A stretch of DNA of 64,000 nt from Shinella kummerowiae. GTDB taxonomy: Bacteria > Pseudomonadota > Alphaproteobacteria > Rhizobiales > Rhizobiaceae. This document shows, in pieces, positions 6,986 through 35,240 of the stretch (the first letter of the stretch is position 1; each line of letters starts with the position of its first letter). The notes below the pieces were generated by a model. That model saw only the letters and a program-made list of their open reading frames with translations, had not been told where the DNA came from and did not search any database. Both the position numbers and the translations under genes were made by a program. The stretch covers positions 186,001 through 250,000 of the forward strand of contig NZ_WUMK01000001.1 in assembly GCF_009827055.1 (NCBI RefSeq). Direction: 5' to 3'.

Positions 6986-6995
6986 CAAGCCTATC

Positions 6996-7108: not shown

Positions 7109-7132
7109 GCAGTTCGTGCGAATACGAACTGC
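7109..7132. promoter_or_regulatory. Perfect 9-bp inverted repeat in the operon gap
   Basis: GCAGTTCGT-GCGAAT-ACGAACTGC, perfect arms, in the 258-base gap between the binding protein and the permease. Possible operator for an internal promoter, or a second RNA hairpin. No T-run follows. Confidence 0.5.
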
Positions 7133-7243
7133 AAGCCGGGAACCAGAACAAGAATATCCCTGTGCGCATCGTTCCGTTCGCAATTGCAAACTCGTTTTAT
7201 TGCGATGCGGGACAATAACTTCCGGTAGAAAGAGGGGAAAAGG

Positions 7244-18455: not shown

Positions 18456-19148
18456 TCACAGCGACAGCGCCGCCATATGAAAACGAAGCTGATCGCTATT
18501 GTAGCGGTAGGCTGCACCGACCGGACAGGCGGCACGGGCGAGACAGCCCGACCCCATGCAGCCTCCCTGCCCTTCCGGCGATCGCAAATGCCCGCGACAG
18601 GCCGGTACGTCAAAGACAGCCGGGCGCACCGCGCCGGCGGGACAGGTGGCGAGGCATGGTTTGTCGGGACAGTGCTCACAGGGATGCGGTGCCCCTGCTG
18701 CCGGGACATGGTCGACCCGGTCCGCAAAACCGAGCGCACCCCGATAGCCATGCCAGAGCCCATAGACGGGGTGAATGAGGATGCCAAGCGGCGAGGCTTT
18801 CAGGCCCTCCGCACGCATTGCCCATTGCTGGAACGGTTGCCAGGGTGGATCGGAGGGGAACCAGGGCGTGGCATTCGCTGTATCGGCGACGGCCCGGATG
18901 ACGTCCTTCGACCAAGTATCAAGGGGGTCGCTGCCGCCCCGATCCGGCCTCTGCCCCTGCCAGCGCGAAAAGGCCGGCCAAAGCGAACTGCCGATATTGC
19001 CGATGAGCACGACGCTCGCCGCAGGGCTGCCATCCGACAGCGTCGGCACGGCCTCCCCTTCGGAAAAATTGACGCTACCGCGCAAAAAAAGACCGTGCGG
19101 CTCGAGAGCCGCACGGATCGTGTCGAGATCGGGGCGACGCGCCCTCAC
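18456..19148 (-). CDS. Ferredoxin-like iron-sulfur protein linked to mttB
   Basis: 230 residues starting at GTG 19148. The C-terminal half has a ferredoxin-type set CEHCPDKPCLATC (Cys157, 160, 165, 169) and a second group Cys184, Cys197, Cys202, Cys208 (CMGSGCLARAACP), as in two-[4Fe-4S] proteins. The N-terminal 150 residues show no clear domain; there is loose similarity to the epoxyqueuosine-reductase/ferredoxin superfamily. GGGAG precedes the GTG, and the GTG overlaps the TGA of an upstream reading frame in phase with mttB (GTGA). Likely supplies electrons to corrinoid chemistry; that role is inference. Confidence 0.75.
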   Translation of the reverse strand: MRARRPDLDTIRAALEPHGLFLRGSVNFSEGEAVPTLSDGSPAASVVLIGNIGSSLWPAFSRWQGQRPDRGGSDPLDTWSKDVIRAVADTANATPWFPSDPPWQPFQQWAMRAEGLKASPLGILIHPVYGLWHGYRGALGFADRVDHVPAAGAPHPCEHCPDKPCLATCPAGAVRPAVFDVPACRGHLRSPEGQGGCMGSGCLARAACPVGAAYRYNSDQLRFHMAALSL

Positions 19149-19255
19149 TTGGTCACGTCTCCCTTGAGTTCATAGTGCGGGCGCCAGACTTCCTTCTGGA
19201 TCATGTCTGCCACCCGTGTCGCTCCGCCTTGCTCCCTGGCGCGATCGGGACCCTT
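19145..19255 (-). other. In-frame coding-looking extension after the mttB stop codon
   Basis: Directly after the mttB TGA (19258-19256) the same frame stays open for 36 codons and stops at 19145-19147, where the TGA overlaps the GTG start of the ferredoxin-like gene. Its last 19 codons begin with ATG 19204 and encode MIQKEVWRPHYELKGDVTK with good rhizobial codon choice. It could be a tiny separate leader gene that couples translation, a readthrough extension of MttB, or the end of a longer ancestral MttB. No strong Shine-Dalgarno precedes the ATG. Confidence 0.45.
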
Positions 19256-20833
19256 TCAGGTGAAGGCGTCCGGCATCGAGTTCTTGCGGTTCGCGACATA
19301 GGCGAGCAGCGCATCGTCTATCGCCGGATCGAGATAGGGCGCCTCGAAGCTTTCCAGCCAGGTGCGGCAGAGCGCATTGGCCCGCTCTTCGATACGCTTC
19401 TGGCCTTCGATTTCCCACTGCTCGAACGAGTTGTTGTCGGCGAGCGGCGAGCGGTAGAAAGCGGTCTGGAAGTTGGCCTGGGTATGGGCGCAGCCAAGAT
19501 AGTGGCTGCCCGGGCCGACTTCGCGGATAGCATCGAGCGCCTGCGCGTTTTCGGAAAGGTCCACGCCCTCGGCCAGCTTCTGCATCATGCCGAGCTGGTC
19601 CTGGTCGATCATGAACTTTTCATAGGACGAGACGAGACCGCCTTCGAGCCAGCCGGCCGCATGCAGCACGAAATTCGTGCCGGCGAGCAGCGTCATGTTG
19701 ATCGTGTTGGCCGATTCGTGGGCCGCCTGCGCATCCGGAACCTTGGAACCGCAGAGCGAGCCGCCGGTGCGGAACGGAATACCCAGACGACGGGCAAGCT
19801 GGGCCGCGCCATAGGAGACGAGCGATGGCTCCGGCGAACCGAAGGTCGGTGCACCCGACTGCATGGAAATCGACGCCGCAAAGGTGCCGAACAGCACCGG
19901 CGCACCCTTGCGGATGAGCTGGGTGAAGGCGGCACCGGCGAGAACCTCGGCGAGAATCTGCGTCAGCGTACCGGCGACCGTGACCGGGCTCATGGCGCCC
20001 GACAGGATGAACGGCGAGACGACACAGGCCTGGTTGTGACGGGCATAGACCTTCAGCGCACCGACCATGGTCTCGTCGAAAACCATCGGCGAGTTGGCGT
20101 TGATGAGGTTCAGCGTCACGCAATTGTTCTCGACGAACTCGTCGCCGAAGACGAGCTTCGCCATGGCGATCGTATCTTCCGCGCGTTCCGGCGCGGTGAC
20201 CGAGCCCATGAACGGCTTGTCGGAATATTTGATGTGGCTGTAGACCATGTCCAGGTGACGCTTGTTCACCGGAACGTCGACCGGCTCGCAGACGGTGCCG
20301 CCGGACGAGTGGATGGACGGCGCCATATAGGCAAGCTTCACGAAATTGCGGAAATCCTCGATCGTCGCATAACGACGGTTGCCCTCGAGGTCGCGCACGA
20401 AGGGCGGGCCGTAGACGGGAGCGAAAACGGTCGCCTTGCCGCCGATCTGCACGTTGCGCTCGGGATTGCGCGCATGCCAGGTGAAGCTGGACGGTGCCGT
20501 CTTCAGGAGTTCACGGCAGAGACCCTTCGGAAAATGCACGCGCTCGCCGCGCACGTCCGCGCCGGCTTCCCTCCAGAGCTGAAGCGCTTCCGGATCTTCG
20601 CGGAACTCGATGCCGATCTCTTCAAGAATGAGGTCGGCATTCGCCTCGATCAGCGCCAGGCCGTCCTCGTCGAGGACCTCGTATTCCTTGATCTTGCGGG
20701 TGATGTAGGGCAGCGACGGGCCAGGACCGCCCCCCGTGCGCGACGCACGCCGCGCGGCAGCACCACGACCCTCGCGCGAGCGGCGACCGCCGCCCTCTCC
20801 CTGTCCGGCTGCCATTTGAGATGTGTCGTCCAT
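19256..20833 (-). CDS. MttB-family (non-pyrrolysine) corrinoid methyltransferase
   Basis: 525 residues from ATG 20833, preceded by GAGAGGAATTG; an upstream GTG-type extension is less likely. Belongs to the trimethylamine methyltransferase MttB superfamily: WHARNPERN, HSSGGTVCEP, MFG-like GSVTAPERAED, NLINANSPMVFDE, LSGAMSPVTVAGTL, GAPTFGSPEP and LHAAGWLEGGL along the TIM barrel. There is no in-frame TAG, so it is not a pyrrolysine enzyme. Relatives without pyrrolysine, such as glycine betaine methyltransferase MtgB, demethylate quaternary amines onto a corrinoid protein. Residues 9-37 are an unusual Gly/Arg-rich N-terminal tail. Confidence 0.92.
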   Translation of the reverse strand: MDDTSQMAAGQGEGGGRRSREGRGAAARRASRTGGGPGPSLPYITRKIKEYEVLDEDGLALIEANADLILEEIGIEFREDPEALQLWREAGADVRGERVHFPKGLCRELLKTAPSSFTWHARNPERNVQIGGKATVFAPVYGPPFVRDLEGNRRYATIEDFRNFVKLAYMAPSIHSSGGTVCEPVDVPVNKRHLDMVYSHIKYSDKPFMGSVTAPERAEDTIAMAKLVFGDEFVENNCVTLNLINANSPMVFDETMVGALKVYARHNQACVVSPFILSGAMSPVTVAGTLTQILAEVLAGAAFTQLIRKGAPVLFGTFAASISMQSGAPTFGSPEPSLVSYGAAQLARRLGIPFRTGGSLCGSKVPDAQAAHESANTINMTLLAGTNFVLHAAGWLEGGLVSSYEKFMIDQDQLGMMQKLAEGVDLSENAQALDAIREVGPGSHYLGCAHTQANFQTAFYRSPLADNNSFEQWEIEGQKRIEERANALCRTWLESFEAPYLDPAIDDALLAYVANRKNSMPDAFT

Positions 20834-21012
20834 GTCAATTCCTCTCAAGCACGCCACCCTGGCGGCCCTGTAACCGCTTCGATCCTAAACAATGCCGCAA
20901 AAGGGACATTCCTAAAAGCGCCACGGGCGTCCCTGATAACGAAAAGCAGCCCGGCGCGGAATGGCGAAAGACCTGCCCGTTCAAAAACAGTGCTGGATAA
21001 AGGAGTGAGCGC

Positions 21013-22995
21013 TCAGCGGACGGCACGCAAGGTGCGCTTCTCGACCGGCAGGGGCTTGCCGAGCAGGAATGGCAACAACAGAAGCGGCTTCATCGGGCGG
21101 GCAAAATGGTAGCCCTGCGCGAACGGAATGCCGAGGCTTTGAAGAGCGGCAAACTGCTCCGCCGTTTCCACCCCCTCCGCAACCACATCCATGCCGAGAT
21201 CCGCGGCCATGCGGCCGATCCCGCGCACGATGTCGACGGTGCGCGCCGAACTCGTCACGTTGTCGATCAACGACTTGTCGAGTTTGACGCGGCGAAACTC
21301 CAGGCCTGCCAGGCGCCCGAGATTGGAGTAGCCGCGCCCGAAATCGTCCACGGCGAAGTCGATGCCGCCGTCGCGCAGATGTTCGATGTTGCGTAGAACC
21401 GTCTCGCTTTCGTCCATCATCGCATCTTCGGTCAGCTCCAGCAGCAGGCCGCCCCTCTGAACGGCATGCCGGTGCACGACGTCGATCACCGCGTCCGAAA
21501 ACCGTTCGAGCGTGAGAAGACGCGGTGAAACGTTGACGGCAACCTGAAGGTCGCGGCCACAGGCTCCGAGCGTGCTGCGGATATTGCAGGCCCGCTCGAT
21601 GACGAACAATGTCAGCGGCAGGATTTCACTCGCTTGCTCCGCCGCGACGACGAGTTCATGAGGGTCGATCAGGCCGAGATCCGGATGCTCCCAGCGAACC
21701 AGCGCTTCAAGGCTGGTGACGCGCCCATCGGCGAGCGAAACGATCGGCTGGAATGCGACATCGATCTGCCCCGTCTCGATCGCGGAGCGGATCTCCACCT
21801 GGAGGGCCTGCTTGCGGTGGCTCATGGCCATGATGTCGGGCGTGGTAAAACGGATGCAGTTGCGACCGGCCGCCTTTGCGACATAGAGCGCGGCATCCGC
21901 ATCCCTCATCATCTGCTCGGGCGTGGCGCCCATGCGGGCGTCGTCGATATGGGCGATGCCGAGACTGGCGGAAATGCGCACGGGCTTGCCATCGAAGAAA
22001 CAGCCGGTGGAGACGCGCGCCACGGCCGCCTCCGCATAGTGGCGCGCCCGCTCCCGCGATCCGTCGAGCAGAATGGCGAACTCGTCGCCGCCGAGTCGAG
22101 AGACGATATCCCCCTCCAGGCGCAGGCTATCGAGAATTTCGGCGACCGCCTTCAGCACATGATCGCCGGCCGCATGGCCGAGCGTGTCGTTGACGCCCTT
22201 GAAACCGTCGAGATCGACGAGCACGACGGCAAAACTCCCCTGCATGGATTGTTCGGCGAGCGCCTCCTCGAAATGGCGGCGGTTCGCGATGCCGGTCAGA
22301 TGATCCGACGCGAGCAGGCGCCGCTTGTCTTCAAGCGCCACCTTCAGGCGGCGATTGATCCGCCGAGACAGGGACAGTTCCACCAGGACGTAGATGAGCA
22401 CGAGACAGGAAAGGCCGACGAACTCGATCTGTATCGACCGGAGATCGTCGAGGCTTTGTCTTTCCTTTTCCACCAGTTCCCGAAGCTGATTGCGCCGCGC
22501 GGTATACGAGCGATCGCTGTATTCCAGAAGCGGCGCCTGAAACTCCATGGCAAAGTCGCCGACCTGCTTGTAGCTCGCCGGATTTCCGGCTTCCAGGGCA
22601 AGAACCGCCGCGTCCAGCCTGGGAAGGCTCGCGAAGACGCGCGAAACGATCGCGGTCTCGCGCACCTCGCCGCTGGCCAGCGCATCCCTGTAGCTCGCGG
22701 TCCGCAGCGTATCCATCCGCGACCAGAAGATATCGAGCGCGAACCGCACATCCTCCCGGCTGACGGTGCCGTCGCCCTGGGTGAAGCGGTAAGCCTTGTT
22801 GAGAAGGTCGTTGAACTCCATCTCCGACCGCGTCGCTTCTTCAAAGCGCGCCGAGTTGAACAGCCGGAGATTGATGCCGTCCGCGACCTTCTTGACGCCG
22901 TCCTGCCCGACAACAAGCATCACCGCGAGAAGGCCAAGCATGGCGGGGAAGCGAATCCAGAGGAGGCCCGACGCGTTGAGCCGCGGAATTTTCAT
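21013..22995 (-). CDS. GGDEF-EAL cyclic-di-GMP protein with periplasmic sensor region
   Basis: 660 residues. TM helix 1 (about 13-30), a helical periplasmic region (about 31-190), TM helix 2 (about 191-208), a GGDEF domain with intact RLGGDEFAI, and an EAL domain with SLEALVRW, DDFGRGYSNL, KLDKSLID and VVAEGVET. Both catalytic signatures are present, so it may make and/or degrade c-di-GMP. Its start overlaps the stop of the upstream molybdopterin-type gene by 4 bases, so that exported protein is probably its periplasmic sensing partner. This pair splits the two halves of the C1 region. Confidence 0.93.
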   Translation of the reverse strand: MKIPRLNASGLLWIRFPAMLGLLAVMLVVGQDGVKKVADGINLRLFNSARFEEATRSEMEFNDLLNKAYRFTQGDGTVSREDVRFALDIFWSRMDTLRTASYRDALASGEVRETAIVSRVFASLPRLDAAVLALEAGNPASYKQVGDFAMEFQAPLLEYSDRSYTARRNQLRELVEKERQSLDDLRSIQIEFVGLSCLVLIYVLVELSLSRRINRRLKVALEDKRRLLASDHLTGIANRRHFEEALAEQSMQGSFAVVLVDLDGFKGVNDTLGHAAGDHVLKAVAEILDSLRLEGDIVSRLGGDEFAILLDGSRERARHYAEAAVARVSTGCFFDGKPVRISASLGIAHIDDARMGATPEQMMRDADAALYVAKAAGRNCIRFTTPDIMAMSHRKQALQVEIRSAIETGQIDVAFQPIVSLADGRVTSLEALVRWEHPDLGLIDPHELVVAAEQASEILPLTLFVIERACNIRSTLGACGRDLQVAVNVSPRLLTLERFSDAVIDVVHRHAVQRGGLLLELTEDAMMDESETVLRNIEHLRDGGIDFAVDDFGRGYSNLGRLAGLEFRRVKLDKSLIDNVTSSARTVDIVRGIGRMAADLGMDVVAEGVETAEQFAALQSLGIPFAQGYHFARPMKPLLLLPFLLGKPLPVEKRTLRAVR

Positions 22996-23468
22996 TTTAC
23001 GACAAGGTCCTTAAGCTGCCAGATGCTGCGTGCCTCGTAGACCGGATCCTTCTGGAGCTCGGTATGCTTGCCGGTCGGATAAATGATCCAGGCAGGCCCC
23101 TTGCTCCGGACCGTGAGCCGCTCCCCGTCCATCTCGATCGCGGCGATCACGTCGAGCGTGGTGAAATCGGCCATTGGGATCTCGACCTCATATTTGTCGA
23201 GCGCAACAGCGGCAGCGGTCGTGCCCTCTACGCCCGCCGCCTTTAGGACGTCGCGTATCAGCGGCCCGCGCACCTGATGCAACGCATCGTCCATGCCGGG
23301 CGCCAGCGCCTTGTAGGTGACGGTGCCCAATTTCTCGACCACCGCTTCGGTCACCGGAAAATCCCCTTTGGCGCTTCGGACGGTAAACAGCACATCGTCA
23401 GCATGGGCGAACGGCGCACTTACGAGGAGTGTGGCAAGAACGAGCAGGTGTTGCAGGATGGAGCGCAT
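22992..23468 (-). CDS. Exported molybdopterin-type (sulfite oxidase fold) domain protein
   Basis: 158 residues from ATG 23468 (MRSILQHLLVLATLLVSAPFA, a signal peptide); the frame opens at 23489. The mature part contains VRGPLIRDVLKAAGV, VEIPMADF and YPTGKHTELQ, matching the oxidoreductase molybdopterin-binding superfamily found as small periplasmic proteins next to GGDEF/EAL or sensor kinases. It lacks an evident cofactor-anchoring cysteine and is short, so a ligand-sensing rather than catalytic role is likely (inference). Confidence 0.78.
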   Translation of the reverse strand: MRSILQHLLVLATLLVSAPFAHADDVLFTVRSAKGDFPVTEAVVEKLGTVTYKALAPGMDDALHQVRGPLIRDVLKAAGVEGTTAAAVALDKYEVEIPMADFTTLDVIAAIEMDGERLTVRSKGPAWIIYPTGKHTELQKDPVYEARSIWQLKDLVVK

Positions 23469-23606
23469 GGGAGGATCCTTCGGTGTCATCCCATCAAATA
23501 TTCATGAAGCCTTAAAAAGCGGTTATTACAATTATTAATACAGCAGAAGCTGGTCGGCGCCCCGGGCGCCGGTCGACGAAACTGCCGCTTCGCCAACTGA
23601 CGAAAA

Positions 23607-23622
23607 TGCGACATCGTCGCAA
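23607..23622. promoter_or_regulatory. TGCGACATCGTCGCA palindrome before the corrinoid-protein gene
   Basis: TGCGAC-ATC-GTCGCA is a near-perfect palindrome 114 bases before the corrinoid gene. Its first 11 bases, TGCGACATCGT, recur at 35221 just before the GbdR-like regulator gene. Possible shared operator. Confidence 0.35.
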
Positions 23623-23735
23623 TTCGCCCAGCACGGCGTCGCAATCGAAAACGCTTTGCAATGCAATGACGCTAACTGTATTCAACGATAGAACCCCGAA
23701 AGCACGCGTATCGCTTTCAATATGTGAGGATTGCC

Positions 23736-24431
23736 ATGTCTGACGACGAAATCATTCTTGCCGATCTCTCCGACGAAGAACTTGTGCAGCAGATGCACGA
23801 CGACCTCTACGACGGCTTGAAAGAGGAAATCGAAGAGGGCACGAACATCCTGCTCGAGCGCGGCTGGGCGCCCTACGACGTCCTGACCCAGGCGCTCGTC
23901 GAAGGCATGCGTATCGTCGGCGTCGACTTCCGCGACGGCATTCTCTTCGTTCCGGAAGTTCTGCTTTCGGCCAACGCCATGAAGGCCGGCATGCATATCC
24001 TTCGTCCGCTGCTCGCCGCCACCGGTGCGCCGAAGCAGGGCAAGATGGTGATCGGCACCGTCAAGGGCGACATCCACGACATCGGCAAGAACCTCGTCGG
24101 CATGATGATGGAAGGCGCCGGCTTCGACGTTATCGACCTCGGCATCAACAACCCGGTCGAAAACTATCTCGAAGCCATCGAGCGCGAGCAGCCGGATATC
24201 CTCGGCATGTCGGCGCTTTTGACCACCACCATGCCCTACATGAAGGTCGTCATCGACACGATGAAGGAAAAGGGCCTGCGCGACGACTACGTCGTGCTTG
24301 TCGGCGGCGCGCCGCTGAACGAGGAATTCGGCAAGGCCGTCGGCGCTGACGCCTACTGCCGTGACGCCGCGGTGGCTGTCGAAACGGCCAAGGAATTCAT
24401 GAAACGCAAGCACAACATGCTTGCCGGCTGA
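23736..24431 (+). CDS. Corrinoid (B12-binding) methyl-carrier protein, MtbC/MtgC-like
   Basis: 231 residues from ATG 23736 (GAGGA upstream). An N-terminal four-helix cap (about 10-95) is followed by a Rossmann B12 domain with the lower-ligand motif Asp112-x-His114-x-x-Gly117 in GDIHDIGKN, then SALLTTTM and VLVGGAPLNEEFG. This is the standard size and fold of corrinoid proteins that accept methyl groups from MttB-type enzymes and pass them to a second methyltransferase. Its direct partners are probably the MttB homologue (19.3 kb) and the MtgA-like enzyme (28.4 kb). Confidence 0.95.
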   Translation: MSDDEIILADLSDEELVQQMHDDLYDGLKEEIEEGTNILLERGWAPYDVLTQALVEGMRIVGVDFRDGILFVPEVLLSANAMKAGMHILRPLLAATGAPKQGKMVIGTVKGDIHDIGKNLVGMMMEGAGFDVIDLGINNPVENYLEAIEREQPDILGMSALLTTTMPYMKVVIDTMKEKGLRDDYVVLVGGAPLNEEFGKAVGADAYCRDAAVAVETAKEFMKRKHNMLAG

Positions 24432-24451
24432 GCCCAGACGTTAAATTCCGG

Positions 24452-24477
24452 ACGGCGCCGCCTTGAAACGGCGCCGT
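24452..24477 (+). terminator. Stem-loop after the corrinoid-protein gene
   Basis: ACGGCGCCG / CGGCGCCGT perfect 9-bp stem, 8-base loop, 20 bases after the stop. Only a weak T-rich stretch follows, so it may attenuate or stabilise rather than stop transcription. Confidence 0.5.
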
Positions 24478-24490
24478 TCGTTGACGACTT

Positions 24491-24634
24491 TTAGTTTGCG
24501 GCGTTTTCTACGCTTCGGCCGGCGTCCTGTGTCGCATCCACGGCATTGGCCGTATCCCGTCCCATGCCGCGAATGGTGTTGCCGCAGGCGCTGAGTGCCA
24601 GAAGTGCGGCGAGAACGATGCTGATGCGGGTCAT
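24491..24634 (-). CDS. Small entericidin-like lipoprotein
   Basis: 47 residues: MTRISIVLAALLALSACGNT gives a signal peptide with lipobox LSAC, then IRGMGRDTANAVDATQDAGRS. This matches the entericidin A/B family of tiny lipoproteins (often about 45 residues). An alternative ATG five codons upstream is possible. It is divergent from the DUF1638 gene and inside the C1 region but probably unrelated to it. Confidence 0.75.
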   Translation of the reverse strand: MTRISIVLAALLALSACGNTIRGMGRDTANAVDATQDAGRSVENAAN

Positions 24635-24666
24635 ATTTGTCCCAGTCATGGTCGGGGTCCCTCTAC

Positions 24667-25308
24667 ATGGATGTGGTTGACACAGAACTTCAGTTCGGAA
24701 GTCCGACGCAGGAACGCACGAACGCGAAAAAAGTTCGCGTGATCGCCTGCGGTGCGATCGCCCGCGAGATTCTGGCCATTCGCGACGCCAACGCACTCGA
24801 TCATATCGACCTTCTCTGTCTTCCCGCCATCTGGCATGCCCATCCGGAAAAGATCGCCCCCGGCGTTGAAAAGGCCGTCGAAGAGGCCCGCGCCGAAGGC
24901 TTTGAGCGCATCTTCGTCGGCTATGCCGATTGCGGCACCGGCGGCCTGCTCGATAAGGTGTGCGAGCGGCTCGGCGTCGAGCGCATCGCCGGACCGCACT
25001 GTTATTCCTTCTTCGCCGGCAACGAGGCCTTCGCCGCGACGGATGACGACGTCACCGCATTCTTCCTCACTGATTTCCTCGCCCGCCAGTTCCGCGCCTT
25101 CGTCATCGAGCCGCTTGGCCTCGATCGCCACCCGCAACTGAAAGACATGTATTTCGGCAACTACACCAAGGTCGTCTATCTCTCGCAGATCGAGGACGAG
25201 GCGTTGCAGAAGAAGGCGAAGGAGGCCGCAGACTATCTTGGCCTCGCCTACGAATACCGCTTCACCGGCTATGGCGACCTGACGGGCGAACTCCTGCGGG
25301 CCCGCTAA
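24667..25308 (+). CDS. DUF1638 family protein
   Basis: 213 residues from ATG 24667. Conserved DUF1638 features: VRVIACGAIAREI near the start, then LPAIWHAHPEKIAPGVEKAV split here, FVGYADCGTGG, and GPHCYSFFAG. DUF1638 is a protein family of unknown function that I recall from gene neighbourhoods of corrinoid methyltransferases in archaea and Alphaproteobacteria. Position between the corrinoid protein and MetVF supports a role in this pathway; several conserved Cys and His residues (CG, DCG, PHC) suggest metal or cofactor handling, as inference. Confidence 0.8.
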   Translation: MDVVDTELQFGSPTQERTNAKKVRVIACGAIAREILAIRDANALDHIDLLCLPAIWHAHPEKIAPGVEKAVEEARAEGFERIFVGYADCGTGGLLDKVCERLGVERIAGPHCYSFFAGNEAFAATDDDVTAFFLTDFLARQFRAFVIEPLGLDRHPQLKDMYFGNYTKVVYLSQIEDEALQKKAKEAADYLGLAYEYRFTGYGDLTGELLRAR

Positions 25309-25408
25309 CCATTCCTTAGCCCTGCACTGTAAATCCGCCATCGCAGTTACCCCTTCCTAAGCCCTGCCTAAGATGATGCGCGCCCAAAGACATGGGCGAG
25401 GCAAGGAC

Positions 25409-26191
25409 ATGGCGGAACGCGACATACGGACGGAAACGGTGGCGGTGCTCATCCAGCCCGGCCCGAATCCGGAAACCGTCGTTAACGCCGTAAAGACCGT
25501 CTTCCCAAACCTCGTCGTCATCGAGGAGCAGCCGGAATCGAAAAAGCTGTTCATCAGGCGGCGCGCACGAAAGCTCGGCTGGGTGCAAACACTCGGCCAG
25601 CTCGCCACCATGATCGTGTCGAAATACGGAAAACGCTTCACGACCAAACGCGCGGCAGAAATCCTTGAGGAATTCGGCGCAAACCCTCTCGTCGACTCGA
25701 CAATCCGCCGTGTGGCCGTTCCGTCTGCCGACAGCCCGGACTTTCTGAAGGTCCTTGCGGACATCCAGCCGGCGGTCCTGCTGCTTGTCAGCACCCGTAT
25801 GCTGAAGGCGGGGACGCTGGATGCGATCTCCTGCCCGGTTCTCAATTTCCATGCAGGCATCAACCCGCAATATCGCGGTCTCCAGGGTGGGTACTGGTCG
25901 CTTGTCATGGCGGACGCGGAGAATTTCGGCGCCACGGTGCATCTCGTCGATGCTGGCGTGGACACCGGCGGCGTGCTCTACCAGCAGCGAATTCGCCCCT
26001 CCAAACGCGACACGATGCAGACCTATCCGCTACTCCAGACGGCGGCCTCTACGGGCATCATTCTCGACGCCTTGCAGGACGCCGTGACCGGCAACCTCAA
26101 GCCTTTGAAAATAGCGGCACCCTCGCGGCAATGGTATCATCCGCCGATCTGGACGTGGCTCTGGAACGGCGTGACGCGCGGCATCTGGTAA
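25409..26191 (+). CDS. Formyltransferase-fold protein in the C1 cluster
   Basis: About 260 residues from ATG 25409 (GGCAAGGAC upstream; ATG 25373 is possible). The C-terminal half carries the formyltransferase core LNFHAGINPQYRGLQGGYW and VHLVDAGVDTGGVLYQQRI, including the Asn-His pair and the Asp of folate-dependent formyltransferases. The N-terminal 100 residues are not of the classical Fmt type. Could transfer or hydrolyse formyl groups from 10-formyl-THF, disposing of C1 units, but a sugar-formylating role cannot be excluded. Confidence 0.75.
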   Translation: MAERDIRTETVAVLIQPGPNPETVVNAVKTVFPNLVVIEEQPESKKLFIRRRARKLGWVQTLGQLATMIVSKYGKRFTTKRAAEILEEFGANPLVDSTIRRVAVPSADSPDFLKVLADIQPAVLLLVSTRMLKAGTLDAISCPVLNFHAGINPQYRGLQGGYWSLVMADAENFGATVHLVDAGVDTGGVLYQQRIRPSKRDTMQTYPLLQTAASTGIILDALQDAVTGNLKPLKIAAPSRQWYHPPIWTWLWNGVTRGIW

Positions 26192-26301
26192 ATCCCCGGG
26201 GACAGGGAAATCCCGCGTCGTTTTTGAGCATGGGGCAGTCGTGGCGAGTGAAGCCCGCGACGCGGCCACACAGCATTGTCAGCACGAGGAGAATTTTCGA
26301 C

Positions 26302-26604
26302 ATGGCAGACCGCATCATCGTCTACTGGCGTGACATCCCCGCCCAGGTCATCATCAAGAAGGGCCGCACGACGGCCAAGCGCGAACTGTCGCTACGCTTC
26401 ACAGAGGCAATCGACATGTGCGCAATGCGCACGGGTGCCGCCGAAACCGACGATTACCTCGCCGAATGGCGCAAGGCTGATCCGGTGCAAGTTTCCGACG
26501 ACCTCGAAGCCGAAGCTGACAAGGCCGCCGCCGAATTCGAGGAAGCCTACGACCGCGAACGCCTCGTCAGCCTGGTCAAATCCGGAGGCCGCGAGAATGG
26601 CTGA
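26302..26604 (+). CDS. PF13769-like small protein (annotated elsewhere as virulence factor)
   Basis: 100 residues from ATG 26302 (GAGGAGAATTTTCGAC upstream). Starts MADRIIVYWRDIPAQVIIKK, then RELSLRFTEAIDMCAMRTG, matching a small protein family labelled virulence factor on weak grounds. Acidic C terminus. Its last 8 bases overlap the MetV-like gene, so the two are translationally coupled. In this operon it is more likely a helper of the methylene-THF reductase or corrinoid system than a virulence factor (inference). Confidence 0.65.
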   Translation: MADRIIVYWRDIPAQVIIKKGRTTAKRELSLRFTEAIDMCAMRTGAAETDDYLAEWRKADPVQVSDDLEAEADKAAAEFEEAYDRERLVSLVKSGGRENG

Positions 26605-27178
26605 CCCGAAACCCGGCAATGCCGCGCCTGCCTCGAAGGCCGCCACAGGCGCCTTCACACCGGCTGGCGTGTCGCCGAGCCGCCGCGCGCGCCGCAAATA
26701 TACGGTCCGCCTCTGGGCCGTGCGCAATTCCCGTTTCCTGGAATGGTTCTACCACCGTTTCGCCGACGTCTTCCTGCTGCTGCATCCGGTGTGGAAACTC
26801 TTCGGCTACCAGCGCGTTGAACGGCCGATCACCTTCGTCGAAAAGCACGTGAAGGGTTTCCTCTTCGACTGTCGCATGTGCGGGCAGTGCGCACTGTCGT
26901 CCACGGGCATGTCCTGCCCGATGAACTGTCCCAAGCAGCTTCGCAACGGCCCGTGCGGCGGCGTTCGCGCCAATGGCAATTGCGAAGTGGAGCCGGATAT
27001 GCCCTGCGTCTGGGTCCAGGCCTGGAAGGGCTCGCAGAACATGACCAAGGGGAATGCCATCATGAACGTGCAGAAGCCGGTGAACCAGTCGCTGCGCGAA
27101 ACCTCCTCCTGGCTGCGCGTGACGGCCGAAGCCGCCGCGGCGCGTGAAGCCGCGGCAGCGGCCGGAAAGGACGCCTGA
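26597..27178 (+). CDS. MetV-like zinc/cysteine-rich subunit of methylene-THF reductase
   Basis: 193 residues. It has the PF12225 pattern (methylene-THF reductase C-terminal) with eight cysteines: Cys92, 95, 98, 107, 111, 120, 129 and 137 (CRMCGQC, CPMNCPK, GPCGG, GNCE, PCVW). In acetogens MetV is the small partner of MetF in a MetVF enzyme. Here metF follows 3 bases downstream. Ala/Pro/Arg-rich N-terminal 30 residues and an Ala-rich C terminus flank the core. An acetogen-type reductase module in a presumed aerobe would suit methyl-THF oxidation. Confidence 0.85.
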   Translation: MADPKPGNAAPASKAATGAFTPAGVSPSRRARRKYTVRLWAVRNSRFLEWFYHRFADVFLLLHPVWKLFGYQRVERPITFVEKHVKGFLFDCRMCGQCALSSTGMSCPMNCPKQLRNGPCGGVRANGNCEVEPDMPCVWVQAWKGSQNMTKGNAIMNVQKPVNQSLRETSSWLRVTAEAAAAREAAAAAGKDA

Positions 27179-27181
27179 TCC

Positions 27182-28276
27182 ATGGCGCATATCGACGAGA
27201 ACCCGCTGGGTGCCCACCTGCCGCTCGATCCCCTGCCCGGCCACTCCTCGCTTGGCCGGTTGGAACGCGTTCTGCGGCGCGGCGAGTTCGCGGTCACCAC
27301 CGAACTCAACCCGCCGGACAGCGCCAATCCGGAAGACGTCTACGAACGCGCCGCGATCTTCGACGGCTGGGTGGACGGCATCAACGCCGTCGATGCGTCG
27401 GGCGCCAATTGCCACATGTCTTCCGTCGGCATCTGCGCACTGCTCACCCGCATGGGCTATGCGCCAATCATGCAGATCGCCTGCCGCGACAAGAACCGCA
27501 TCGCCATCCAGGGCGACGTTCTCGGTGGTGCGGCCATGGGCGTGACGAACATGATGTGCCTGACCGGCGATGGCGTTCAGGCCGGCGACCAGCCGGGAGC
27601 AAAACCCGTCTTCGACCTCGACTGCATGTCCTTGCTCGAAACCGTGCGCATCATGCGCGACAACGGAAAATTCCTGTCGGGCCGCAAGCTGACCACACCG
27701 CCGAAGGTTTTTCTCGGCGCTGCCATCAATCCCTTCGCCCCACCTTACGATTTCCGCCCGTACCGCCTCGGCAAGAAGATCGAAGCCGGCGCGCAGTTCG
27801 TGCAGAGCCAATATTGCTTCGACGTACCGATGTTCCGCGAATACATGAAGAAGGTTCGCGACCTCGGCCTGCACGAAAAGTGCTTCATCCTCGTCGGCGT
27901 CGGCCCCATGGCGTCGGCCAAGACGGCAAAGTGGATCCGCTCCAACGTGCCCGGCATCCACATCCCCGATTCCGTCATCACGCGTCTGGAAGGCGCGCAG
28001 GACCAGAAAAAGGAAGGCAAACAGCTCTGCATCGACATCATCAACGAGGTGAAGGAGATCGAGGGCGTTTCCGGCGTGCACGTCATGGCCTACCGCCAGG
28101 AAGAATATGTCGCAGAGATCGTGCATGATTCCGGCGTGCTGAAGGGTCGCAAGCCCTGGAAGCGCGAACCGAACCCCGTCGACCAGCTTGTGGCCGAGCG
28201 CATCGAGAGAACACGCGAAGGCGTCGAACAGAACCAGCAGCAGATGGCGGAAAAAGCCGCCCATCACCCCCATTGA
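27182..28276 (+). CDS. Methylene-tetrahydrofolate reductase, MetF family
   Basis: 364 residues, a MetF-type TIM barrel: FAVTTELNPPDSANPEDVYE near the N terminus (catalytic-type Glu), NAVDASGANCHMSS, ITR-like VLGGAAMGVTNMMCLTGDGV, FLGAAINPF, QFVQSQYCFD and HIPDSVITRLEGAQDQKKEG. Interconverts methylene-THF and methyl-THF. Paired with the MetV-like gene (3-base gap). It differs from the housekeeping MetF for methionine synthesis by its partner and context, so it probably runs toward methylene-THF in C1 catabolism (inference). Confidence 0.9.
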   Translation: MAHIDENPLGAHLPLDPLPGHSSLGRLERVLRRGEFAVTTELNPPDSANPEDVYERAAIFDGWVDGINAVDASGANCHMSSVGICALLTRMGYAPIMQIACRDKNRIAIQGDVLGGAAMGVTNMMCLTGDGVQAGDQPGAKPVFDLDCMSLLETVRIMRDNGKFLSGRKLTTPPKVFLGAAINPFAPPYDFRPYRLGKKIEAGAQFVQSQYCFDVPMFREYMKKVRDLGLHEKCFILVGVGPMASAKTAKWIRSNVPGIHIPDSVITRLEGAQDQKKEGKQLCIDIINEVKEIEGVSGVHVMAYRQEEYVAEIVHDSGVLKGRKPWKREPNPVDQLVAERIERTREGVEQNQQQMAEKAAHHPH

Positions 28277-28366
28277 TCGCGCGCCGGCCACAAGCCGGAA
28301 CGCCGCTTGTAACACCGGAAATCGCGCGCTAGACGTGGTCGAGCGCCCCGCCCCAGAGGACACTAA

Positions 28367-29329
28367 ATGACACGCACCATCGTCGCCTCGGCCACCCGCG
28401 AAATCATCATCGGTTTCGACCAGCCCTTCTGCGTCATCGGCGAACGCATCAACCCGACCGGCCGCAAGAAGCTCGCCGCCGAGATGATCGTGGGCAACTT
28501 CGACACCGTCATCAAGGACGCGCTGGAACAGGTCGCCGCCGGCGCGACGATGCTCGACATCAATGCGGGCGTCACCTCGGTCAACCCGAACGAGACCGAG
28601 CCGGGCCTGCTCGTCCAGACGCTGGAAATCGTCCAGGGCCTCGTCGATATTCCGCTCGCCATCGACAGTTCGGTCACCGCCGCCATCGAGGCCGGCCTCA
28701 AGGTCGCCAAGGGCCGCCCGCTGGTCAACTCCGTCACGGGTGAGGAAGAGAAGCTCGAAGCGATCCTGCCGCTCGTCAAGAAATACGACGTTCCGGTCGT
28801 TGCCATCTCGAACGACGAGACGGGCATCTCGATGGATCCGGACGTGCGCTTCGCCGTCGCCAAGAAGATCGTCGAGCGCGCCATGGATCATGGCATCAAG
28901 CCGCACGACATCGTCGTCGACCCGCTGGTCATGCCGATCGGAGCGCTCGGTGATGCCGGCCGCCAGGTCTTCCAGCTGCTCTATCGCCTGCGCAACGAGC
29001 TGAAGGTCAACACGACCTGCGGCCTTTCCAACATCTCCTTCGGCCTGCCGCACCGTCACGGCATCAATGCCGGCTTCATCCCGATGGTCATCGGCGCCGG
29101 CATGACGTCGGCCATCATGAACCCCTGCCGTCCGCAGGAAATGGAGGCCGTGCGCGCCGCCAACGTGCTCAACGGCACCGATGCGAATTGCTCCAACTGG
29201 ATCATGACCTACCGCGATCACAAGCCAGCGGAAGGCGGTGCCGTTGCAGCAGCGTCTGCAAGCCCGGCGGCCGGCGGTCGCCGTGGTGGTCGTGCTGCCC
29301 GCGCCGGCGCCGGCGCGGCACGAGAATAA
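28367..29329 (+). CDS. Methyl-THF:corrinoid methyltransferase (pterin-binding, MtgA/AcsE-like)
   Basis: 320 residues. Pterin-binding TIM barrel: VIGERINPTGRK (residues 23-34), MLDINAGVTSVN, PLAIDSSVTAAIEAGL and PLVNSVTGEEEKL, then NDETGISMDP and GLSNISFGLPHR, which bind the pterin. Such enzymes move a methyl group between a corrinoid protein and tetrahydrofolate, so this one links the corrinoid protein at 23.7 kb to the MetVF pair. The last 30 residues are a Gly/Arg/Ala-rich tail (GGRRGGRAARAGAGAARE), absent from typical homologues. Confidence 0.93.
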   Translation: MTRTIVASATREIIIGFDQPFCVIGERINPTGRKKLAAEMIVGNFDTVIKDALEQVAAGATMLDINAGVTSVNPNETEPGLLVQTLEIVQGLVDIPLAIDSSVTAAIEAGLKVAKGRPLVNSVTGEEEKLEAILPLVKKYDVPVVAISNDETGISMDPDVRFAVAKKIVERAMDHGIKPHDIVVDPLVMPIGALGDAGRQVFQLLYRLRNELKVNTTCGLSNISFGLPHRHGINAGFIPMVIGAGMTSAIMNPCRPQEMEAVRAANVLNGTDANCSNWIMTYRDHKPAEGGAVAAASASPAAGGRRGGRAARAGAGAARE

Positions 29330-29330
29330 C

Positions 29331-29654
29331 ATGGCGAGCGGGCGGCAGTTTCCTCGCGATGCCTTCAGCCTCTGGCTGCAGGCCCCCCTCGTCATCGCCA
29401 TGCGCTGCCACGAGATGCAGATGGCGGCGCTGACGGGCTCGAAGCAGGATACGGCCGAGATGAGCCGGATGATCACCGAGAAGATGGCTGCCGCGACGGA
29501 AAGCGTCGTGGCGGCCAATTTTGCAGTTGCAAAGGCCATGATGACGGCGGCTTCGCCCTCCGCCACGGCCCGCGCCGTGTCCGAAGCCGCGATCAAGCCC
29601 TATGGCAAGCGCGTGCGCCGGAACGTGCGGCGGCTCGCCGCCAAGAAGGGTTGA
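29331..29654 (+). CDS. Small helical protein co-transcribed with the C1 genes
   Basis: 107 residues from ATG 29331, one base after the MtgA-like stop. Met/Ala-rich helical sequence (MASGRQFPRDAFSLWLQAPL, then TEKMAAATESVVAANFAVAK), basic C-terminal end (KRVRRNVRRLAAKKG). Phasin-like in composition but shorter. No family assigned. Tight spacing means it belongs to the operon and may be a structural or scaffolding element. Confidence 0.65.
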   Translation: MASGRQFPRDAFSLWLQAPLVIAMRCHEMQMAALTGSKQDTAEMSRMITEKMAAATESVVAANFAVAKAMMTAASPSATARAVSEAAIKPYGKRVRRNVRRLAAKKG

Positions 29655-29684
29655 CGGGTTCTACCCCACAGGAAAGTACGATCG

Positions 29685-31757
29685 ATGCGCTACGAAGGTG
29701 AGAACGAGACCATCATGACCGAAGTTTCGGCAAAAGAACCACTGGTCCTCTTCATGCCCTCCGGCAAACGCGGCCGCTTCCCGATCGGTACGCCGGTGCT
29801 CGAAGCCGCGCGAAAACTCGGCGTCTATGTCGAGAGCGTCTGTGGTGGGCGTGCCACTTGCGGACGCTGTCAGATCGAGGTGCAGGAAGGCAATTTCGCC
29901 AAGCACAAGATCGTCTCCTCGCTCGACCACATCTCGGAAAAAGGCCCGAAGGAAGAGCGCTACGAAAAGATCCGCGGCCTGCCGGATGGCCGCCGCCTCT
30001 CCTGTTCCGCCCTCATCCTCGGCGACCTCGTCGTCGACGTGCCGCAGGACACCGTCATCAACGCGCAGGTCGTGCGCAAGGCCGCGACCGACCGTGTCAT
30101 CGAGCGCAACGCCGCCGTCCAGCTGTGTTATGTCGAGGTGGACGAACCCGACATGCACAAGCCGCTCGGCGATCTCGATCGCCTGAAGGTGATGCTCGAG
30201 AAGGACTGGGGCTGGAAGGACCTGCTGATCGCGCCGCACCTCATTCCGCAGGTGCAGTCGATCCTGCGCAAGGGCAACTGGGGCGTCACCGCCGCCATCC
30301 ACCGCGACATGGACTCATCGCGCCCCTTCATCGCCAGCCTGTGGCCGGGCCTCAAGAACGAGGCCTATGGCATCGCCTGCGATATCGGCTCGACGACCAT
30401 CGCCATGCATCTCGTCTCGCTGCTCTCCGGCCGCATCGTCGCCTCCTCCGGCACGTCGAACCCGCAGATCCGCTTCGGCGAAGACCTGATGAGCCGCGTC
30501 TCCTACGTCATGATGAACCCGGACGGCCGCGAGGCCATGACCAAGGCGGTGCGCGAAGCCGTCAACGGTCTCATCGGCAAGGTCTGCGAAGAGGGCCAGG
30601 TCGACCGGCACGACATTCTCGACATGGTGTTCGTCGCCAACCCGATCATGCATCACCTCTTCCTCGGCATCGACCCGACGGAACTCGGCCAGGCGCCGTT
30701 TGCGCTCGCCGTCTCCGGCGCCCTGCAATATTGGGCACATGAACTGGATATCGACGTCAACCGCGGCGCCCGGCTCTACACGCTACCCTGCATTGCCGGC
30801 CATGTCGGCGCGGATGCGGCGGGCGCGACGCTCTCCGAAGGCCCCTACCGGCAGGATCGCATGATGCTGCTCGTCGATGTCGGCACCAATGCGGAAATCG
30901 TGCTCGGCAACCGCCAGCGCGTCGTCGCCGCCTCCTCACCGACAGGCCCGGCCTTCGAGGGCGCAGAAATCTCCTCCGGCCAGCGTGCGGCCCCCGGCGC
31001 CATCGAGCGCGTGCGCATCGACGCGCAGACGCTGGAACCCAAATTCCGCGTCATCGGCGTGGAAAAATGGTCGGACGAAGAAGGCTTTGCCGAGGCTGCG
31101 GCAAGCGTCGGCGTCACCGGCATCTGCGGCTCTGCCATCATCGAGGTCGTCGCGGAAATGTACCTTTCCGGCATCATCTCCGAGGATGGCGTCGTGGATG
31201 GCACGATGGCGGAAAAGAGCCCGCGCATCCTGCAGAACGGCCGCACCTTCTCCTACCTGCTGCATGACGGCGAACAGCGCATCACGGTGACGCAGAACGA
31301 TATCCGCGCCATCCAGCTTGCCAAGTCCGCACTCTATGCCGGCATCAAGCTTCTGATGGAAAAGCAGGGTGTCGATCATGTCGATACGATCCGCTTTGCC
31401 GGCGCCTTCGGCTCGTTCATCGATCCGAAATACGCCATGGTGCTCGGCCTCATCCCGGATTGCGACCTCAACGAGGTGAAGGCGGTCGGCAATGCCGCCG
31501 GCACGGGCGCGCTGATGGCGCTGCTCAACCGCGATCACCGCCGCGAGATCGAAAAGACGGTCAATCACATCGAGAAGATCGAGACAGCGCTGGAGCCGAA
31601 TTTCCAGCAGCTTTTCGTCAACGCCATGGCTCTGCCGAACAAGGTTGATGCCTTCCCGGAACTGGCGAAAGTCGTGATGCTGCCGGAGCGCAAGGTTCTG
31701 TCCGACGACGGCGGTGGTGAAGGTGGCGGACGCCGCAGACGCCGCAGCCGCGAGTAA
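29685..31757 (+). CDS. RACo-like corrinoid reductive activator ([2Fe-2S] + ASKHA ATPase, DUF4445)
   Basis: 690 residues; ATG 29715 is an alternative start, but AGGAAAG precedes 29685. An N-terminal plant-type ferredoxin domain has Cys53, 59, 62 and 107 (CGGRATCGRC ... LSC). A linker follows, then an ASKHA-type domain (about 220-640; IACDIGSTTIAMHLVSL, LLVDVGTNAEIVLGN, GPAFEGAEIS, RFAGAFGSFID). This layout matches RACo-type proteins that use ATP to reduce inactive Co(II) corrinoid to Co(I). A Gly/Arg-rich tail GGGEGGGRRRRRSRE closes the protein. It likely keeps the corrinoid protein active in air-exposed cells. Confidence 0.93.
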   Translation: MRYEGENETIMTEVSAKEPLVLFMPSGKRGRFPIGTPVLEAARKLGVYVESVCGGRATCGRCQIEVQEGNFAKHKIVSSLDHISEKGPKEERYEKIRGLPDGRRLSCSALILGDLVVDVPQDTVINAQVVRKAATDRVIERNAAVQLCYVEVDEPDMHKPLGDLDRLKVMLEKDWGWKDLLIAPHLIPQVQSILRKGNWGVTAAIHRDMDSSRPFIASLWPGLKNEAYGIACDIGSTTIAMHLVSLLSGRIVASSGTSNPQIRFGEDLMSRVSYVMMNPDGREAMTKAVREAVNGLIGKVCEEGQVDRHDILDMVFVANPIMHHLFLGIDPTELGQAPFALAVSGALQYWAHELDIDVNRGARLYTLPCIAGHVGADAAGATLSEGPYRQDRMMLLVDVGTNAEIVLGNRQRVVAASSPTGPAFEGAEISSGQRAAPGAIERVRIDAQTLEPKFRVIGVEKWSDEEGFAEAAASVGVTGICGSAIIEVVAEMYLSGIISEDGVVDGTMAEKSPRILQNGRTFSYLLHDGEQRITVTQNDIRAIQLAKSALYAGIKLLMEKQGVDHVDTIRFAGAFGSFIDPKYAMVLGLIPDCDLNEVKAVGNAAGTGALMALLNRDHRREIEKTVNHIEKIETALEPNFQQLFVNAMALPNKVDAFPELAKVVMLPERKVLSDDGGGEGGGRRRRRSRE

Positions 31758-34955: not shown

Positions 34956-35240
34956 CTTCTCATCCCTCTGAAATCCGCTTCGTATTTGGCCGGAGCGCCC
35001 CTCATTGTCAAACCGGAACGGGCGGCAATGGCGGCCGGATTGGGCCTGTCGCAATCGGACAACGCATCCGCAGGGGTCGCAAATGTGCAAGCGCGAACAA
35101 AATGTCATAATTCCGCCCGAACGCCCTGACATTTCAACGATACGCGACGCAGCGCAGTCGTAACCATCCTTTTCTGTGTCGCAAAAATACTAGCATGGCG
35201 GCCATTCTCCCTGCGACCATTGCGACATCGTGCCTCCAGT

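What the first reader, a model, noticed from the sequence alone, without database searches (positions are those of the whole stretch)
18456..31757. Anaerobe-style corrinoid methyl-transfer pathway in a presumed aerobic rhizobium
The region encodes an MttB homologue without an amber codon, a corrinoid protein, an MtgA-type methyl-THF transferase, a MetV+MetF pair, a [2Fe-2S] RACo-like activator, DUF1638 and extra Fe-S and formyltransferase-like proteins. By family knowledge this is a full route from a methylated amine to methylene-THF. Nearby are a betaine-type transporter, bmt, B12-supply genes and a GbdR-like regulator. The substrate of the MttB homologue and how Co(I) is protected from oxygen are open questions.
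Basis: partly seen in the sequence, partly recalled or inferred. Interest (0 to 1): 0.85.

Follow-up and report, generated by a model that had tools for sequence, protein, structure and literature searches.

The report
Corrinoid betaine demethylation, plus unrecognised parts
The region holds a complete vitamin-B12-type pathway that probably strips methyl groups from glycine betaine in an aerobic soil bacterium; such a pathway was described in 2025, but two conserved genes beside it look like working parts whose role has not been recognised.

Summary
The 'anaerobe-style oddity' is already explained: Mausz et al. (PNAS 2025) showed genetically that MtgC/MtgD drive aerobic glycine-betaine demethylation in Ruegeria and named the same locus in Sinorhizobium meliloti; Price et al. 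[quoted passage not shown] Added here, by computation only: (1) a 100-aa 'virulence factor' gene (PF13769) between the formyltransferase-like gene and metV tracks MttB almost perfectly: in 241 Alphaproteobacteria, 50 of 50 PF13769 genomes have MttB and 50 of 53 MttB genomes have PF13769; in 319 Pseudomonadota, 39 of 39 and 39 of 40 (7 positives shared). (2) The Fe-S protein beside MttB is predicted to have the CblC/QueG/reductive-dehalogenase B12 fold plus eight invariant cysteines: a candidate corrinoid reductase or chaperone, though not MttB-specific (12 of 53 genomes with it lack MttB). MetV is optional (18 of 53). Substrate, PF13769 function and oxygen protection are untested. Verdict: known pathway, new member, with a testable list of missing parts.

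The parts
18456..19148 (-). Fe-S protein directly downstream of mttB; predicted CblC/QueG/reductive-dehalogenase-type B12 fold plus a tail with eight invariant Cys
   Evidence: No Pfam family at E<=0.001 (Fer4_11 at E=0.0058). AF2 mean pLDDT 89.7; Foldseek ranks 1-48 are CblC/MMACHC, QueG and reductive dehalogenases, only 11 of them at E<=0.001. MttB within 500 bp, same strand, in 79 of 80 loci. Annotated 'ferredoxin' in S. meliloti.
19256..20857 (-). mttB/mtgB homologue without an amber codon (quaternary amine:corrinoid methyltransferase)
   Evidence: PF06253 E=1.3e-233; PDB 4yyc 1079 bits, 9yce 'Glycine betaine methyltransferase' 414 bits; below the TIGR02369 pyrrolysine-MttB cut-off, 281.7 vs 525 bits.
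23724..24431 (+). mtgC, corrinoid protein
   Evidence: PF02310 and PF02607; DIHDIG motif.
24637..25308 (+). DUF1638 protein (B12 reactivation partner by published fitness data)
   Evidence: PF07796 E=2.7e-28; PMC5764234 passages.
25373..26191 (+). formyltransferase-like protein
   Evidence: PF00551 E=6.7e-12; NFH and VDTGG segments present (that these hold the catalytic Asn-His-Asp is recalled). Kept in L017, where the core cluster is absent.
26302..26604 (+). PF13769 'virulence factor' gene, 100 aa: near-universal genomic partner of MttB in the samples
   Evidence: PF13769 87.7 bits vs cut-off 25 (longer frame 26131-26604); co-occurrence; gene order; invariant W-R-D-I-P-x-Q-V in 22 diverse sequences.
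26597..27178 (+). metV (DUF5981), 8 Cys
   Evidence: PF12225 E=3.5e-27 on the frame 26276-27178; Cys count; in 18 of 53 MttB genomes.
27182..28276 (+). metF2 (methylene-THF reductase family; proposed methyl-THF oxidiser)
   Evidence: PF02219 E=1.1e-31; a separate metF with 279 bits lies elsewhere in the genome.
28367..29329 (+). mtgD/mtgA: methyl-THF:corrinoid protein methyltransferase
   Evidence: PF00809 E=2.7e-27; NF005719 394.1 bits, above its cut-off of 259.
29331..29654 (+). small ORF, weakly phasin-like, between mtgD and the RACo gene
   Evidence: Phasin_2 E=0.005, under the cut-off; found in 44 of 80 Rhizobiales loci and in S. meliloti with the corrected frame.
29685..31757 (+). RACo/RamA-type reductive activator with N-terminal [2Fe-2S] ferredoxin domain
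   Evidence: PF14574 E=1.5e-89, PF17651, PF17650, PF00111.
9461..10477 (+). bmt/mtgE-type homocysteine methyltransferase (third methionine-synthase module in the published model)
   Evidence: PF02574 E=6.6e-64.
5987..9191 (+). OpuAC-type ABC transporter: substrate-binding protein, permease, ATPase
   Evidence: PF04069 E=2.1e-57; PF00528 and PF00005.
35220..36260 (+). AraC-type regulator with DJ-1/PfpI domain (GlxA/GbdR-like architecture); link to the cluster inferred from proximity
   Evidence: PF12833 and PF01965; a GlxA-type regulator lies beside the Azoarcus cluster.

Best explanation
The cluster is the aerobic MtgBCD-type corrinoid demethylation module. MttB/MtgB moves a methyl group from a quaternary amine, most likely glycine betaine, to Co(I) of MtgC; MtgD moves it to THF; MetV/MetF2 oxidises methyl-THF to methylene-THF. 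RACo, with DUF1638, re-reduces MtgC when Co(I) is lost to Co(II). Bmt/MtgE can draw on the same methyl-corrinoid for methionine. The PF13769 protein is an obligate small partner of the MtgC/MtgD(/MetF2) methyl-transfer complex, and the Fe-S protein beside MttB is a CblC/QueG-like corrinoid reductase or chaperone that loads or repairs the cofactor. Shown here: gene content, order, co-occurrence, predicted fold. Shown by others in Ruegeria pomeroyi: MtgC and MtgD are needed for glycine-betaine growth. Inferred: substrate in this organism, direction of MetF2, and the roles of PF13769 (about 0.5 for a complex subunit) and of the Fe-S protein (about 0.55 for a corrinoid-handling role).
For: Pathway genes and order. 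Published genetics and proteomics, with S. meliloti MtgBCDE, reactivation modules and cobalamin operon said to be colocated (PMC12478193). RamA-like and DUF1638 genes cofit with the split methionine synthase (PMC5764234 passages). Betaine-type transporter, bmt and AraC-type regulator nearby. PF13769 with MttB: 50/50 and 50/53 in 241 genomes, 39/39 and 39/40 in 319, 82 distinct positive genomes in all. PF13769 lies within 300 bp of DUF1638 in 32 of 47 genomes holding both (40 of the 47 on one contig). Next gene downstream of PF13769 in 65 rhizobial loci: MetV 57, MTHFR 2, MtgD 6; in 24 diverse loci: MTHFR 12, MetV 3, MtgD 4 (one after a gap over 600 bp), RACo 2, none seen 3. Fe-S protein.
Against: No functional test here. 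The genome also has a full MetH with its activation domain, so the methionine branch is not needed for methionine. Two paralogues are equally near the D. hafniense betaine enzyme (window copy 414 bits; contig C41 copy 412 bits), so similarity does not fix the substrate. Co-occurrence is not corrected for relatedness, and positives outside Alphaproteobacteria are few: one genome (G373) in the 319, plus the Azoarcus plasmid. PF13769 passes its cut-off in Bacillus subtilis, which shows no MttB or DUF1638 match (controls), so the Pfam family has other uses; Methanosarcina acetivorans has MttB and DUF1638 matches but no PF13769. The PF13769 model failed (pLDDT 52.7). The Fe-S family occurs without MttB in 12 of 53 genomes; Foldseek TM-scores are only about 0.38-0.55 over its top 48; sequence profiles do not reach CblC, and reach QueG only at E=1.4 over the cysteine region.
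Confidence: 0.8

Rival explanations
1. The MttB of this cluster uses another quaternary amine (proline betaine, carnitine, gamma-butyrobetaine, a sulfonium) and glycine betaine is handled by a paralogue or another route.
For: Four MttB paralogues in the genome. The copy at C41 matches the betaine enzyme 9yce as well as the window copy does (412 vs 414 bits). The distant copy at C1:511518 (188 bits to 9yce) sits beside a PEP-mutase-like gene and two FAD/GCV_T proteins of the dimethylglycine/sarcosine dehydrogenase type. Five MttB-type enzymes in Eubacterium are reported with other preferences (PMC12478193 discussion).
Against: An OpuAC-type transporter and bmt lie 8-15 kb away; S. meliloti, with the orthologous locus, has a betaine route that does not need Bmt when methionine is given (reported in PMC12478193).
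Confidence: 0.3
2. The cluster is mainly a split methionine synthase (MtgC, MtgD, Bmt/MtgE with RACo and DUF1638) and demethylation is secondary.
For: In Phaeobacter these genes are cofit as methionine synthase (PMC5764234 passages); in Ruegeria MtgC and MtgD are dual (PMC12478193); bmt is near here.
Against: A complete MetH with activation domain is present; MttB, metF2 and metV have no place in methionine synthesis alone; PF13769 and MttB coincide in 50 of 50 genomes.
Confidence: 0.15
3. PF13769 is a subunit of the methyl-THF-oxidising MTHFR only, standing in for or working with MetV, not of the corrinoid complex.
For: Next recognised gene downstream is MetV or MTHFR in 59 of 65 rhizobial and 15 of 24 diverse loci; in L129 and L130 it pairs with an MTHFR and no other core gene is in the stretch seen.
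Against: In 6 of 65 rhizobial loci it lies directly before mtgD with no MTHFR or MetV detected (L083, L086, L087, L089, L090, L091); in L134 and L143 it is next to mtgD, in L135 and L136 next to RACo.
Confidence: 0.35
4. The Fe-S protein is a general B12-trafficking protein that merely happens to sit next to mttB in Rhizobiaceae.
For: 12 of 53 genomes with it lack MttB, among them neighbourhoods of housekeeping genes (dapF, ffh; argC) in the two examined; L017, G003 and G020 keep it without MttB.
Against: 79 of 80 close loci and 30 of 33 relatives compared have it adjacent to MttB; in L118 it sits with another corrinoid protein, two URO-D proteins and DUF1638.
Confidence: 0.45

Closest known systems
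MtgBCDE of Ruegeria pomeroyi DSS-3 (Mausz et al. 2025, PMC12478193), with the S. meliloti locus named there
   Same: MttB-family protein, MtgC, MtgD, RamA-like and DUF1638 proteins, metF paralogue; S. meliloti ortholog cluster in the same order.
   Different: Here core genes, metV and metF2 are clustered, and MetH is present as well. The main text of that paper has no occurrence of 'virulence', 'ferredoxin', 'iron-sulfur', 'hypothetical', 'unknown function', 'metV' or 'formyl'; its supplements were not read.
Desulfitobacterium hafniense MtgB/MtgC/MtgA glycine betaine system
   Same: Non-pyrrolysine MttB (414 bits to 9yce), corrinoid protein, pterin methyltransferase.
   Different: Aerobic host; MtgC scores under both NCBIfam MtgC cut-offs (214.8 vs 370; 178.6 vs 310).
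Split methionine synthase and B12 reactivation genes of Phaeobacter inhibens (Price et al. 2018, PMC5764234, passages)
   Same: Corrinoid, pterin and homocysteine modules, RamA-like and DUF1638 proteins.
   Different: No demethylase context there; here MttB and an MTHFR are in the cluster.
CblC (MMACHC), epoxyqueuosine reductase QueG, reductive dehalogenases (for the Fe-S protein)
   Same: Predicted fold: first 48 Foldseek hits are all of these; cysteine-rich tail in a C-terminal position.
   Different: 230 aa; no Pfam family at E<=0.001; not in QueG or dehalogenase families by the Pfam and NCBIfam scans.
PF13769 Virulence_fact (domain of the staphylococcal protein CvfC, recalled)
   Same: Matches the profile over its whole length.
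   Different: A stand-alone 100-aa protein in a methyl-transfer operon; nothing in its context suggests virulence.

Membership tests
Aerobic MtgBCD(E) glycine-betaine methyltransferase | pfam06253 protein without pyrrolysine | tested here: met
Aerobic MtgBCD(E) glycine-betaine methyltransferase | separate corrinoid protein MtgC (PF02310/PF02607, DxHxxG) | tested here: met
Aerobic MtgBCD(E) glycine-betaine methyltransferase | separate pterin-binding methyltransferase MtgD | tested here: met
Aerobic MtgBCD(E) glycine-betaine methyltransferase | RamA/RACo and DUF1638 reactivation genes | tested here: met
Aerobic MtgBCD(E) glycine-betaine methyltransferase | separate homocysteine methyltransferase MtgE/Bmt | tested here: met
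   9461-10477
Aerobic MtgBCD(E) glycine-betaine methyltransferase | absence of MetH (typical, not defining; Hyphomicrobiales reported as exception) | tested here: not met
   Complete MetH, five domains
Aerobic MtgBCD(E) glycine-betaine methyltransferase | betaine demethylation activity | not testable with these tools
   Needs enzymes or mutants
Pyrrolysine trimethylamine methyltransferase (TIGR02369) | score above curated cut-off; in-frame amber codon | tested here: not met
   281.7 vs 525 bits; no in-frame stop
AcsV corrinoid activator (NF040756) | score above curated cut-off | tested here: not met
   388.7 vs 800 bits
CblC/QueG/reductive dehalogenase superfamily (Fe-S protein) | B12-binding flavodoxin/nitroreductase-like fold | tested here: inconclusive
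   Foldseek top E=6.6e-5, ranks 1-48, but TM about 0.38-0.55 on a predicted model; no sequence-profile support
CblC/QueG/reductive dehalogenase superfamily (Fe-S protein) | corrinoid binding | not testable with these tools
   Needs purified protein
CblC/QueG/reductive dehalogenase superfamily (Fe-S protein) | cysteines for two [4Fe-4S] clusters (as in QueG and dehalogenases, not CblC) | tested here: met
   8 invariant Cys columns in 81 sequences; cluster type is inference
PF13769 Virulence_fact | score above gathering cut-off | tested here: met
   87.7 vs 25 bits
PF13769 Virulence_fact | role in virulence | not tested
   Name only; context is metabolic

The most novel reading that the evidence does not exclude
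Bacterial MttB systems in Proteobacteria need two parts absent from the published model: the PF13769 protein, an obligate subunit of the corrinoid methyl-transfer complex not found in the methanogen control, possibly what lets Co(I) chemistry run in air; and a CblC/QueG-like Fe-S protein that reduces or reloads the corrinoid. The 'virulence factor' label on PF13769 in these bacteria is then simply wrong.
Probability: 0.35. Interest if true: 0.7.

Novelty: new member of a known kind. Interest (0 to 1): 0.5.

Why it matters
Aerobic corrinoid demethylation of betaine is a newly recognised, widespread carbon and nitrogen route, and its weak point is keeping Co(I) alive in air. An unnamed small protein that is present in all 82 PF13769-positive genomes together with MttB, and a likely B12-handling Fe-S protein, are concrete candidates for the missing parts. 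They make the question testable with single-gene deletions in S. meliloti or Ruegeria, and would correct a misleading 'virulence factor' annotation in many rhizobia and roseobacter-like bacteria.

Tried and rejected
Rejected: 'anaerobic oddity or recent transfer' (the cluster is in 39 of 61 relatives by MttB, and in a stable order). Rejected: pyrrolysine MttB. Rejected: MetV as a general part. The formyltransferase-like gene was not pursued as a core part: tblastn finds it in many but not all rhizobial loci, it is kept in L017 without the core genes, and in Azoarcus purU takes a comparable place.

Led nowhere: AF2 of PF13769 (pLDDT 52.7; its 65-row alignment is too uniform), so no fold search was made with it; VIA-align library not available; sequence-profile links from the Fe-S protein to CblC or QueG; paper searches for bacterial CblC relatives (listings only) and for CvfC (listing only).

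Errors of mine: the 'phasin' query was an out-of-frame translation, so that column is void, and notebook entry 3 says wrongly that the small ORF is confined to Shinella; one search repeats it in frame (44 of 80 loci and S. meliloti). One search ended in an error after its first prints. In one search I kept 53 of 66 genomes as Fe-S-positive (E<=1e-30) and dropped 13 weaker ones (G068, G094, G096, G108, G139, G159, G163, G165, G183, G201, G202, G250, G251) before counting. In one search G048, with a weak match, was left out of the distance count. 15 of 80 rhizobial loci show no PF13769 in the stretch held: L017 lacks the core genes, others end early or have inserts, and I did not look beyond them.
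Full report
What is there. The window lies in a 6.34 Mb genome of the genus Shinella or very near it: the nearest named relatives of the Fe-S gene are Shinella and the DNA is 87.6% identical over 78% of the query to Shinella sp. PSBB067. S. meliloti pSymB of strain Ak57 carries the orthologous cluster: Fe-S 'ferredoxin', MttB, cobalamin-binding protein, DUF1638, formyl transferase, 'virulence factor', MetV-type protein, methylenetetrahydrofolate reductase, methyl-THF:cobalamin methyltransferase, a small hypothetical protein, ASKHA protein, with bmt and a betaine transporter ATPase upstream.

Is it new. No. Mausz et al. 2025 (PMC12478193; outline, sections 3, 4 and 9, and passages read) show in Ruegeria pomeroyi that mtgC and mtgD deletions abolish growth on glycine betaine even with methionine, that MetF2, RamA and DUF1638 proteins rise on N-osmolytes, and state that in S. 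meliloti MtgBCDE, both reactivation modules and the cobalamin operon are colocated. They also note Hyphomicrobiales as genomes with both metH and mtgBCD, which fits the full MetH found here. Price et al. [quoted passage not shown] MttB itself has an orthologous solved structure, 4yyc (1079 bits; that it is from S. meliloti is recalled), and is 414 bits from 9yce, named glycine betaine methyltransferase.

What the published model leaves out, part one: PF13769. Between the formyltransferase-like gene and metV lies a 100-aa gene (26302-26604) that matches only Pfam 'Virulence factor' (no NCBIfam family at E<=1). Over 241 Alphaproteobacteria (one sample) PF13769 is in 50 and MttB in 53; all 50 are among the 53 (Fisher p=1.3e-48, not corrected for relatedness; 32 anonymous families with PF13769, 34 with MttB). 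The three MttB-only genomes are G122 and G269, whose best MttB matches are distant (E=2.0e-76 and 8.6e-78), and G296, a real exception. With DUF1638: 47 both, 3 PF13769 only, 2 DUF1638 only (G167, G296). So PF13769 follows MttB slightly more closely than DUF1638 does. A second sample of 319 Pseudomonadota gives 39 and 40, with all 39 shared; the odd one, G374, has a 73-position MttB match. Seven positives are in both samples, so 82 distinct PF13769 genomes were seen, each with MttB. Only one of these positives lies outside Alphaproteobacteria (G373); Azoarcus KH32C, a betaproteobacterium, adds another PF13769 inside the cluster, without MttB in the 27 kb seen.

The order is MtgC-DUF1638-PF13769-(MetV)-MTHFR-MtgD-RACo in the window, S. 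meliloti, Azoarcus, L120, L122 and L137. Where MetV and the MTHFR are missing from the stretch, PF13769 stays, directly before MtgD (6 of 65 rhizobial loci). The 24 diverse loci L120-L143 were not a random draw: eleven were chosen because PF13769 lay far from DUF1638. In 22 of them at least one of MtgC, MtgD, DUF1638, RACo or MTHFR is in the stretch; in L131 and L132, on short contigs, none is. Across 22 sequences down to about 40% identity, 19 columns are invariant, including the W-R-D-I-P-x-Q-V signature. Against specificity: the control Bacillus subtilis has a PF13769 match but no MttB or DUF1638 match, and Methanosarcina acetivorans has MttB and DUF1638 matches but no PF13769 (controls). 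No paper of the held library contains 'PF13769'; a search for 'virulence factor' with DUF1638, MtgC or split methionine synthase brought, beside the two papers above, only papers on other subjects by their titles (listing).

Part two: the Fe-S protein. The gene next to mttB (18456-19148) has no Pfam family at E<=0.001. Aligned with 80 relatives it has eight invariant cysteines in its C-terminal third. Its AlphaFold model is good (pLDDT 89.7, pTM 0.85; the other four models 69-86). Foldseek against the PDB ranks CblC/MMACHC first (E=6.6e-5), then QueG and reductive dehalogenases through rank 48, after which unrelated proteins follow. Eleven hits reach E<=0.001, all CblC. These are cobalamin-handling proteins, and QueG and the dehalogenases also carry Fe-S clusters, so I read the protein as a corrinoid reductase or chaperone. 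It lies within 500 bp of MttB on the same strand in 79 of 80 loci, though these are the best 80 of 161 relatives found, and in 30 of 33 relatives compared. It is not restricted to MttB genomes: 12 of 53 strong positives lack MttB and 12 of 53 MttB genomes lack a strong match. In L118 (G167), which has no MttB, it sits beside a B12-binding protein, two URO-D proteins and DUF1638.

Mechanism. Most likely: MttB to MtgC to MtgD to methyl-THF, oxidised by MetV/MetF2; RACo with DUF1638 re-reduces MtgC; Bmt can use the same methyl group. PF13769 is most likely a small subunit of this methyl-transfer machinery, with the MTHFR as the main rival partner; the Fe-S protein most likely handles the corrinoid itself. 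The substrate is most likely glycine betaine by neighbourhood and by analogy, but the genome has four MttB paralogues, two of which are equally close to the known betaine enzyme, and one of which sits with dimethylglycine/sarcosine-dehydrogenase-like genes.

Verdict.

Noticed in passing
L146 (G000:C1:503000-522000), 8498-15819 -: A distant MttB paralogue in a run with a PEP-mutase-like gene and two FAD/GCV_T proteins of the dimethylglycine or sarcosine dehydrogenase type, possibly a separate betaine pathway.
   Followed up: partly
L017 (Shinella zoogloeoides PQ7) 8778-10690: MttB, MtgC, DUF1638, PF13769, MetV, MetF2, MtgD and RACo are absent from the stretch while the Fe-S and formyltransferase-like genes stand next to each other; G003 and G020 also have the Fe-S gene but no MttB.
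   Followed up: partly
window 21013-23489 -: An EAL-GGDEF protein and a small Oxidored_molyb-domain protein lie between mttB and mtgC; the annotated S. meliloti locus has neither there.
   Followed up: no
window 29331-29654 +: Small, weakly phasin-like ORF between mtgD and RACo, found in 44 of 80 rhizobial loci and S. meliloti.
   Followed up: partly
L009 (Azoarcus sp. KH32C plasmid) 3044-19218: FAD oxidoreductase, ETF subunits, ProVW-type transporter, GlxA-type regulator and purU precede the core methyl-transfer cluster, with no MttB in the 27 kb seen.
   Followed up: no
L130 (G160:C100) 4971-9955 +: PF13769 and a divergent MTHFR lie directly before cobalamin biosynthesis genes (CbiG, tetrapyrrole methylases).
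   Followed up: no
L118 (G167:C32) 4998-9348 +: Fe-S protein, B12-binding protein, two URO-D proteins and DUF1638 next to a methylmalonyl-CoA mutase-like gene, without MttB: perhaps another corrinoid methyltransferase system.
   Followed up: no
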